IMG/VR virus record: IMGVR_UViG_3300017743_002800
Coordinates: 1 to 21,927 of that record
DNA from: a virus
Length of the DNA stretch: 21,927 nt
Strand: one strand, 5' to 3'
Below, one piece after another: positions 12,706 to 13,269 of the stretch. The notes under the pieces are model-generated. The model was not told the origin of the DNA. It searched no databases and saw only the letters and a program-made list of their open reading frames with translations. Made by a program: the position numbers and the translations under genes. The stretch's first letter is position 1, and the number at the start of each line of letters is the position of its first letter.

Positions 12706-13269
12706 ATGCCTGATATAGATATTGACTTGGCTGATAGAAATATTTTACTTGATAAAGTAAAACACACTAGAGCAACCATAATTAAGGACAAAGAAACAAA
12801 ACCACACAACACAGGTGTATACTTTACAGACTGTCCGCAAATTCCAAATAGTAATCAATGTTCTATCAATTATAAGGAAGCAGATAGTTTAGGGTATTTC
12901 AAAATAGATTTGTTGAATGTAAATTTATATTCACTGGTGAAAGACAGAGTTGTGCTCCAAGAAATGTTTGACCGTGACCCGCCATGGAACAGACTTGAAG
13001 ATAAAACATTTGTTGATGAACTATTCCATTTGAATGGCCATCATGATGTTGTATCTAAATTAATGCCACAAAATCTTGAACAACTAGCGGCATGCTTGGC
13101 CATTATAAGACCAGCCAAGAGATATCTAATAGGCAAGAGTTGGCCTGAAATATTAGAAGATGTTTGGGTTAAACCAAAAAATGAGCAATATTATTTTAAG
13201 AAGGCTCATGCGTTTTCATATGCAGGTGCAGTAATTGTGCATATGAATTTACTTGACTCTGCGAACTAA
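12706..13269 (+). CDS. Miniature DnaE (PolIII alpha)-like protein
   Basis: 187 aa that reads like a drastically shortened DNA polymerase III alpha palm. It opens with MPDIDID (Asp3/Asp5/Asp7), the DnaE motif PDFDVD that carries two catalytic aspartates. Next come KPHNTGVYF (like KHAGGVVI of E. coli DnaE), SLGYFKIDLLNVN (like LVKFDFLGLRT, third aspartate at Asp68), a PQNLEQLAACLAIIRPAKRY block (like PDCFEDMIALVALFRPGPL) and YYFKKAHAFSYAGAVI (like YGFNKSHSAAYALVSY). PHP, thumb, most of the fingers, clamp-binding and OB parts are absent. The order of motifs is conserved, and a consensus promoter directly in front argues for a designed gene rather than debris. Activity is unknown; a regulator, decoy or minimal nucleotidyltransferase are options. 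It overlaps the convergent gene by 21 nt. Confidence 0.75.
   Translation: MPDIDIDLADRNILLDKVKHTRATIIKDKETKPHNTGVYFTDCPQIPNSNQCSINYKEADSLGYFKIDLLNVNLYSLVKDRVVLQEMFDRDPPWNRLEDKTFVDELFHLNGHHDVVSKLMPQNLEQLAACLAIIRPAKRYLIGKSWPEILEDVWVKPKNEQYYFKKAHAFSYAGAVIVHMNLLDSAN

What the first reader, a model, noticed from the sequence alone, without database searches (positions are those of the whole stretch)
12706..13269. Miniature (187 aa) stand-alone DnaE/PolIII-alpha-like protein
The protein keeps the DnaE motif order (PDIDID, HNTGVYF, GYFKIDLL, IIRPAKR, KKAHAFSYA) with candidate catalytic Asp3/Asp5/Asp68, but loses the PHP, thumb, most of the fingers and the C-terminal parts. It starts exactly at the first catalytic motif and has its own perfect TTGACA-17-TATAAT promoter with the ATG 6 nt later, so it does not look like a decaying fragment. 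A polymerase-derived protein this small could be a regulator, a decoy, a partner of the larger DnaE, or a minimal nucleotidyltransferase.
Basis: partly seen in the sequence, partly recalled or inferred. Interest (0 to 1): 0.85.

Follow-up and report, generated by a model that had tools for sequence, protein, structure and literature searches.

The report
Half of a split phage polymerase
This small phage protein is one half of a stripped-down DNA-copying enzyme whose other half is made from a separate gene; the split enzyme was already noticed in giant phages in 2021 but has not, as far as we found, been tested in the laboratory.

Summary
The ORF is real: 187 aa, dN/dS 0.07 to its nearest relative, and D3, D5, D7, K66, D68, R135, P136 and K138 unchanged in 99 of 99 full-length homologues. 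It is not a stand-alone mini-polymerase. It is the C-terminal ("B") half of a minimal Pol III alpha cut between DnaE's RFLN and PDIDID motifs. Its model (pLDDT 93) aligns over 183 of 187 residues with E. coli alpha 400-779. The N-terminal ("A") half, with the GRGS motif, is a separate ~173-aa gene whose model covers E. coli 278-393, without overlap. All 10 named phages tested carry both halves at distant places plus a family B polymerase. Iyer et al. 2021 described this split enzyme, so this is a new member of a known kind. Not mentioned in the passages I saw: the window's marine lineage also carries an unsplit, PHP-less 563-aa DnaE 5.4 kb away. This pair recurs in 11 contigs where A was not seen, but all are fragments, so A is not shown to be lost. 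Most likely A and B form a two-protein active site (inferred) that assists the phage replisome (weaker inference). The cited promoter is real and, like several in these phages, predicts a leaderless mRNA.

The parts
12706..13269 (+). C-terminal half ('B') of split minimal Pol III alpha, 187 aa; metal ligands D3, D5, D68
   Evidence: PHROG 11778 E=2e-57; 81-row alignment and model, pLDDT 93; VIA-align to 2hnh 400-779, Z 9.3, 183 aligned; D3/D5/D68 in 99 of 99
12671..12699 (+). Sigma-70-like promoter TTGACA-17-TATAAT ending 6 nt before the ATG; predicts a leaderless mRNA
   Evidence: exact match, 3 such sites in window vs 0.06 expected; kept in L001, L060, G031, absent in L061, L063, L064
13249..13623 (-). 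Convergent 124-aa ORF (PHROG 11637, unknown function); a convergent ORF of similar size follows B in 10 of 10 named-phage loci (in XacN1 after one extra ORF); homology between them not tested
13689..14510 (+). Syntenic protein, weak match to RaK2 ORF126 (9.6e-5) and to a PHROG of virion structural proteins (1.2e-6)
15409..16371 (+). DNA primase (RaK2 gp61-like)
   Evidence: PHROG 47 E=4e-32; phmmer to RaK2 primase 1.6e-29
17226..18635 (+). DnaB-like replicative helicase
   Evidence: PHROG 19 E=1.3e-71
18632..20323 (-). Unsplit PHP-less DnaE, 563 aa, with both palm halves, a fingers match and PDVDID / KVDIL motifs
   Evidence: PF07733 E=6.5e-40, PF17657 E=2e-15; PDB Pol III alpha 1.5e-29; D104, D106, K226, D228 invariant in the 20-row alignment A5
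436..1893 (+). UvsW-like helicase, head of the conserved block that holds B
   Evidence: phmmer to RaK2 UvsW 2.7e-113
1912..2430 (+). Conserved block protein (RaK2 ORF120, PHROG 11279), unknown function
5850..6296 (+). Conserved block protein (weak RaK2 ORF121 match 2.5e-6, PHROG 11758), unknown function
8415..9089 (+). Conserved block protein (RaK2 ORF122, PHROG 11058), unknown function

Best explanation
The ORF encodes the catalytic half (B) of a two-gene, minimal Pol III alpha. B supplies the DxD and KxD aspartates that hold the metal ions, plus a cut-down fingers region. A separately encoded N-terminal half (A, about 173 aa, GRGS motif) supplies the rest of the nucleotidyltransferase fold and the NTP site. 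A and B are inferred to join without covalent linkage (there is no room for an intein at the cut) into one polymerase core without PHP, clamp-binding, OB or tau-binding parts. It accompanies the family B replicase of these phages. The most likely role, inferred from the place of B near primase and helicase genes and of A near the clamp loader, is a distributive helper polymerase: primer extension before hand-off, lagging-strand or gap filling. Shown here: homology, cut point, complementary coverage, co-occurrence, conservation. Inferred: the complex, its activity, its role. In the window's own phage A is expected elsewhere in the genome and has not been seen.
For: A and B models cover adjoining, non-overlapping stretches of the same enzymes: E. 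coli 2hnh 278-393 (A, Z 10.2, 97 aligned) and 400-779 (B, Z 9.3, 183 aligned); M. tuberculosis 5lew 304-413 and 419-806; Taq 3e0d 294-455 and 461-836; PolC 3f2b 825-965 and 971-1294. Profile comparison: A aligns to residues 21-98 (2e-8) and B to 187-317 (7.6e-6) of the unsplit DnaE family A5, and A and B do not align with each other (0.36). PF07733 matches over about positions 16-98 (one to 125) in a short ORF in 10 of 10 named phages with B. 57 of the 60 listed B records (63 in all) are among the 60 listed A records (63 in all); of the other three, OQ508956 has A by profile, PP728206 is a 109-kb record, OQ508957 was not tested further. D3, D5, D7, K66, D68, R135, P136, K138 and H168 invariant in 99 of 99; G141-R-G-S144 of A in 123 of 123. 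dN/dS 0.066 and 0.083. PolB over the cut-off in 10 of 10 named phages, PolA in 0 of 10. B has a primase or helicase gene within 4 kb downstream in 8 of the 9 named loci fetched with that flank. Independent published description: Iyer et al. 2021, PMC7824862 (passages, section 13).
Against: No A-B complex was modelled, and no assay was found. No A gene is in the window or in any of the 11 contigs that hold both B and the unsplit DnaE; the six of these that I measured reach at most about 35 kb downstream of B. Two contigs of 191 and 359 kb have A but no detected B. In XacN1 B is not beside primase or helicase but near a dNMP kinase and a Pol III epsilon gene. Sequence-only scores of B to cellular DnaE are weak (Pfam fingers 0.055 for the window protein, 72 of 81 relatives at 0.1 or better with best 2e-4; PDB profile 0.0074). 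Foldseek E-values do not pass 0.001. Z of 6-10 for B is partly in the range that the tool calls middling.
Confidence: 0.8

Rival explanations
1. In the window's lineage B no longer works with A but binds the unsplit 563-aa DnaE encoded 5.4 kb away, as an extra catalytic or regulatory subunit.
For: Unsplit DnaE and B occur in the same contig, roughly 4-14 kb apart, in 11 contigs, and no contig of 35 shows both a separate A and an unsplit DnaE.
Against: The 11 contigs are fragments of 22-108 kb. G016, whose B groups with the B of G021 (unsplit DnaE) in a 100/99-supported set of four, has a separate A 122 kb from B, so A may simply lie outside. B keeps the 13 checked conserved residues in 10 of 10 unsplit-linked rows.
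Confidence: 0.12
2. B (with or without A) is a catalytically dead paralogue that regulates or decoys replication.
For: A family B polymerase is present in 10 of 10 named phages, so the split enzyme is not obviously needed to copy the genome.
Against: The metal ligands and R135, P136, K138, H168 are invariant in 99 of 99, K165 and K166 in 98 and 97; A keeps GRGS in 123 of 123. Dead paralogues usually lose such residues.
Confidence: 0.08
3. The ORF is a decaying or mis-assembled fragment of a larger dnaE.
For: It is short and covers only part of DnaE; two of 104 relatives' loci (L067, L071) have an interrupted frame.
Against: Similar extent in independent contigs and cultured phages, own promoter, dN/dS 0.066, conserved synteny.
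Confidence: 0.01

Closest known systems
Split minimal Pol III alpha of group 2.2 jumbo phages (Iyer et al. 2021, PMC7824862; PHROG 11127 matches the N half and 11778 the C half)
   Same: Two separate, distant genes; N half with NTP site, C half with metal and template parts; accompanies a family B polymerase; the paper names Atu_ph07 in group 2.2, one of the phages tested here.
   Different: The window adds a marine lineage with an unsplit PHP-less DnaE next to the primase-helicase genes; A has not been seen there. A 141-kb phage (Slicko01) shows that the pair is not confined to jumbo phages.
Cellular DnaE / PolC (C-family DNA polymerases)
   Same: Palm fold, DxD and KxD motifs, fingers RPxK-like and KxHA motifs; GRGS in the partner A.
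   Different: No PHP, clamp-binding, OB or C-terminal domains; palm divided between two proteins; about 360 aa in all against chains of 910-1220 in the PDB matches.
Cyanobacterial split DnaE (trans-splicing inteins)
   Same: A DnaE encoded by two distant genes.
   Different: No intein at the cut; cut lies inside the palm before the first catalytic motif. (Details of the cyanobacterial case are recalled; PMC3919608 mentions it, passages.)
Unsplit PHP-less phage DnaE (window 18632-20323; LR756508.1)
   Same: Minimal C-family polymerase of a large phage, also without PHP.
   Different: One chain (563 aa in the window, open frame of 575 in LR756508.1) with both palm halves.

Membership tests
Split minimal Pol III alpha (Iyer 2021) | Small protein homologous to the C-terminal, Mg-binding part of the Pol III alpha catalytic core | tested here: met
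Split minimal Pol III alpha (Iyer 2021) | N-terminal NTP-binding part as a separate, distant gene in the same genome | tested here: inconclusive
   met in 10 of 10 named relatives and in 10 viral contigs that have both; the window's own 21.9-kb fragment has no separate A
Split minimal Pol III alpha (Iyer 2021) | Accompanied by a family B replicase | tested here: inconclusive
   10 of 10 named relatives; none found in the 11 fragments with B plus unsplit DnaE
Split minimal Pol III alpha (Iyer 2021) | The two halves form an active polymerase | not testable with these tools
   needs biochemistry; no complex modelled
C-family DNA polymerase (DnaE/PolC) | Palm with DxD and KxD metal ligands | tested here: met
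C-family DNA polymerase (DnaE/PolC) | GRGS (NTP-binding) motif in the same chain | tested here: not met
   absent from the 187 aa; found in A, 123 of 123
C-family DNA polymerase (DnaE/PolC) | PHP, clamp-binding and OB domains | tested here: not met
   the whole 187 aa aligns to E. coli 400-779; no such Pfam match
Trans-splicing split DnaE | Split intein fused to each half | tested here: not met
   A ends 1-3 residues after EFL or EFF in 9 of 10 named phages (ELSKEM in the tenth) and after EFL or EFM in the 20 commonest ends of 123 contig sequences; B starts 0-19 residues before its first matched residue

The most novel reading that the evidence does not exclude
The marine lineage of the window has kept B without A and pairs it with the neighbouring unsplit, PHP-less DnaE, so that phages have switched between a one-piece and a two-piece minimal Pol III and this lineage is caught in between, with a half-polymerase reused as a subunit of the whole one.
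Probability: 0.12. Interest if true: 0.75.

Novelty: new member of a known kind. Interest (0 to 1): 0.45.

Why it matters
A DNA polymerase whose active site is shared between two proteins made from distant genes would be a very small C-family polymerase and a natural split enzyme. The exact cut, the two models and the list of phages with laboratory hosts (E. coli phages 121Q and PBECO4, Pseudomonas phages PA5oct and Paride) make the 2021 prediction directly testable. The coexistence with an unsplit form in marine phages gives a comparison for what the split form is for.

Tried and rejected
Stand-alone polymerase: rejected, because the NTP-binding half is on another gene. Decay or frameshift: rejected. 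Direct sequence similarity of B to the window's own DnaE: blastp only 0.069; it shows only with profiles (A1 profile to window DnaE 1.8e-4; hhalign 7.6e-6). PDB by single sequence gave one chance hit. PADLOC and NCBIfam gave nothing for B.

Search for A in the window lineage: the A profile hit only the unsplit DnaE in the window and in LR756508.1, and only the unsplit DnaE in the 11 contigs with B plus unsplit DnaE. 160 A loci compared with lineage contigs shared metabolic genes at up to 88% identity, but no B lay within the stretches held, so no link was made. The clamp-loader gene that neighbours A elsewhere was not hit in the six lineage contigs or the window, so that region may just not be covered; but G024, which has a separate A, gave no clamp-loader hit either, so this argument is weak. 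The scan of bacterial genomes gave 11 loci, 11 of 11 titled MAG, probably binned phage DNA (not followed).

Counts and dropped rows: the 99 B rows are those of 105 hits in 104 loci with a stop and at least 170 aa; dropped were L002, L003 and L013 (contig ends) and L067 and L071 (interrupted; two pieces in L071). For A, 123 distinct sequences of at most 230 aa were kept of 157 hits; every second one was listed, two of these (one short, one long) were left out by hand, and 60 were aligned for the fold. Searches returned only the best 80 of at least 596 and 598 candidate stretches, so the 99 and 123 are biased to relatives of the queries. In the dN/dS comparison L061 was saturated. Tree labels cover 24 of 99 rows; 75 have no label.

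Full report
What was claimed.

The ORF is present. It matches PHROG 11778 'DNA polymerase' at 2e-57, while Pfam gives only a sub-threshold fingers match. tblastn finds 63 phage records with it, in all 63 of which one place covers at least 80% of the query. It sits in a conserved block which in RaK2 and 121Q runs: UvsW, several small ORFs (RaK2 119-123), this ORF, a convergent ~120-aa ORF, ORF126, primase, helicase. In the window and seven contigs a script found UvsW, ORF120, ORF122, B and primase in 8 of 8, ORF121 and ORF126 in 6 of 8 each; the helicase was not in that search. Other named phages keep parts of the block; in XacN1 primase and helicase are not within 4 kb of B. D3, D5, D7, H34, G37, K66, D68, L70, W94, P121, I134, R135, P136, K138, H168 and Y172 are invariant in 99 of 99 full-length homologues. 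dN/dS against L001, L060 and L064 is 0.066, 0.083 (dS 2.4, near saturation) and 0.199; L061 was saturated. D3 and D5 fall on E. coli D401 and D403; that D401, D403 and D555 are the E. coli catalytic residues is recalled.

It is half of an enzyme. A PF07733 search of 10 named phages that have the ORF found in all 10 a second short ORF that matches only the part of the palm before the catalytic motif. These proteins are 169-182 aa and end in EFLN, EFLK, EFFR and the like (ELSKEM in one), where DnaE reads RFLNPER before PDIDID. In RaK2, 121Q and Paride they lie two or three genes upstream of the clamp loader gp44, and a marine contig, L161, has gp44 about 2.4 kb downstream of A. 57 of the 60 listed B records are also among the 60 listed records of a tblastn with RaK2's A half (63 records each in all).

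Structure. AlphaFold2 models from alignments of window and viral-contig sequences are confident: B pLDDT 93.0, pTM 0.80; A (marine homologue in L161) pLDDT 91.3, pTM 0.69. VIA-align places B on E. coli alpha 400-779 (2hnh, Z 9.3, rmsd 3.7, 183 aligned) and A residues 74-173 on 278-393 (Z 10.2, rmsd 2.5, 97 aligned); M. tuberculosis, Taq and PolC give the same adjoining ranges. The top 15 entries for B and the 15 listed for A are Pol III alpha or PolC (three titled only 'DNA polymerase', with PolC-like numbers). Foldseek alone reaches only 1.6e-3 and 4.2e-3. Profile comparison agrees: A to residues 21-98 and B to 187-317 of the unsplit DnaE family, A and B not alike. The first ~70 residues of A are not covered by the listed matches.

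Prior art. Iyer et al. 2021 (PMC7824862; [quoted passage not shown] The CBB paper (PMC5259590, passages) noted only a 172-aa Pol III alpha-like protein as truncated; the Atu_ph07 paper (PMC6102473, passages) mentions a Pol III alpha subunit. Five searches of the paper library (listings) showed no other description and no experimental work on it; that library lacks most subscription journals. So the kind is known.

What the window adds. 5.4 kb downstream, on the other strand, lies a 563-aa DnaE with both palm halves and no PHP. Of 35 viral contigs searched, 12 have a separate A, 14 have such an unsplit DnaE, 9 have neither, and none has both; B is in 30 (10 of the 12, 11 of the 14, 9 of the 9). 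PolB is in 13 of the 35 and in LR756508.1: in none of the 11 contigs with B plus unsplit DnaE, but in 2 of the 3 with unsplit DnaE alone. LR756508.1 (484 kb) shows the unsplit form only. The 11 contigs are 22-108 kb fragments. On the B tree the 10 labelled unsplit-linked rows fall in several places (at least 4 changes of label), and the B of G016 (separate A) is in a 100/99-supported group of four with that of G021 (unsplit DnaE). A therefore may well exist in the window's lineage outside the sampled stretches; this is not shown.

Mechanism. Shown: the ORF carries the metal-binding half, its relatives come with the NTP-binding half, and both are conserved. Inferred: the two assemble into one site. 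Inferred more weakly: the enzyme helps the family B replicase, perhaps extending primers, from the placement of B near primase and helicase and of A near the clamp loader. It lacks the domains by which cellular Pol III alpha contacts clamp and tau (domain roles recalled), so a distributive role is likely. Some of these phages also have a separate Pol III epsilon (CBB and Atu_ph07 by their papers; XacN1 by annotation), which could proofread.

The promoter. TTGACA-17-TATAAT ends 6 nt before the ATG. With at most one mismatch, 6 of 11 such sites in the window and 7 of 17 in G031 have an ORF start 5-8 nt on, against about 0.04 and 0.06 expected; over the window and seven contigs it is 25 of 101 (G021 0 of 10), while a decoy with reversed boxes gave 0 of 30. 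In the window this points to leaderless messages for UvsW, the ORF120-like gene, the ORF at 5850, B, primase and helicase. In three further relatives (L061, L063, L064) B has no such promoter.

Verdict. A real, well conserved, already predicted half of a split minimal Pol III; interest moderate because the striking idea is published but, in the searches made, untested.

Noticed in passing
window sites ending at 429, 1903, 5844, 12699, 15402 and 17218; also G031, G020 and others: Sigma-70-like promoters whose -10 box ends 5-8 nt before a start codon: 6 of 11 sites in the window, 25 of 101 over eight sequences, about 0.4 expected, 0 of 30 decoys. Suggests leaderless mRNAs for replication genes in these phages.
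   Followed up: partly
window 18632-20323 (-); LR756508.1 47382-49046; L220-L297: A family of unsplit, PHP-less phage DnaE proteins in viral contigs (78 loci; open frames 557-607 aa in 14 contigs), some in fragments that also hold a family B polymerase (G038, G040).
   Followed up: partly
L161 9866-12504 and G033 12358-13183, G021 75645-76470, window 6542-6880 and 7554-8219: A metabolic gene cassette (by eye SufE-like, MazG-like, ferredoxin-like, ThyX-like; names not tested) lies beside B in some phages and beside the clamp loader in others, at up to 88% identity: it seems to move between places.
   Followed up: no
window 11994-12374: S-adenosylmethionine decarboxylase (PF02675, 8.9e-11) upstream of B.
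   Followed up: no
window 21278-21913: AlgH-like DUF179 domain (PF02622, 9.7e-24) in a phage.
   Followed up: no
window 3955-4914 and 4908-5828 (-): Two adjacent ORFs that look alike by eye (YSLGDIDVWNSHFLN / YSLGDMNVWNKHFLN); the first has no Pfam match, the second was not tested.
   Followed up: no
G042 (191 kb) and G043 (359 kb): Viral contigs with a separate A half but no detected B half.
   Followed up: no
L161:5986-6504, first ~70 residues of A: The N-terminal part of A is not covered by any PDB match listed; it stands where PHP would be.
   Followed up: no
window 13249-13623 (-): Convergent gene of unknown function (PHROG 11637) after B; a convergent ORF of similar size follows B in 10 of 10 named-phage loci, homology untested.
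   Followed up: no
L067, L071: Two viral contigs whose B frame is interrupted; sequencing error or real decay not distinguished.
   Followed up: no
L477-L487 (genome contigs): 11 B homologues in records titled as MAGs of bacteria and archaea, probably phage contigs put into bins.
   Followed up: no
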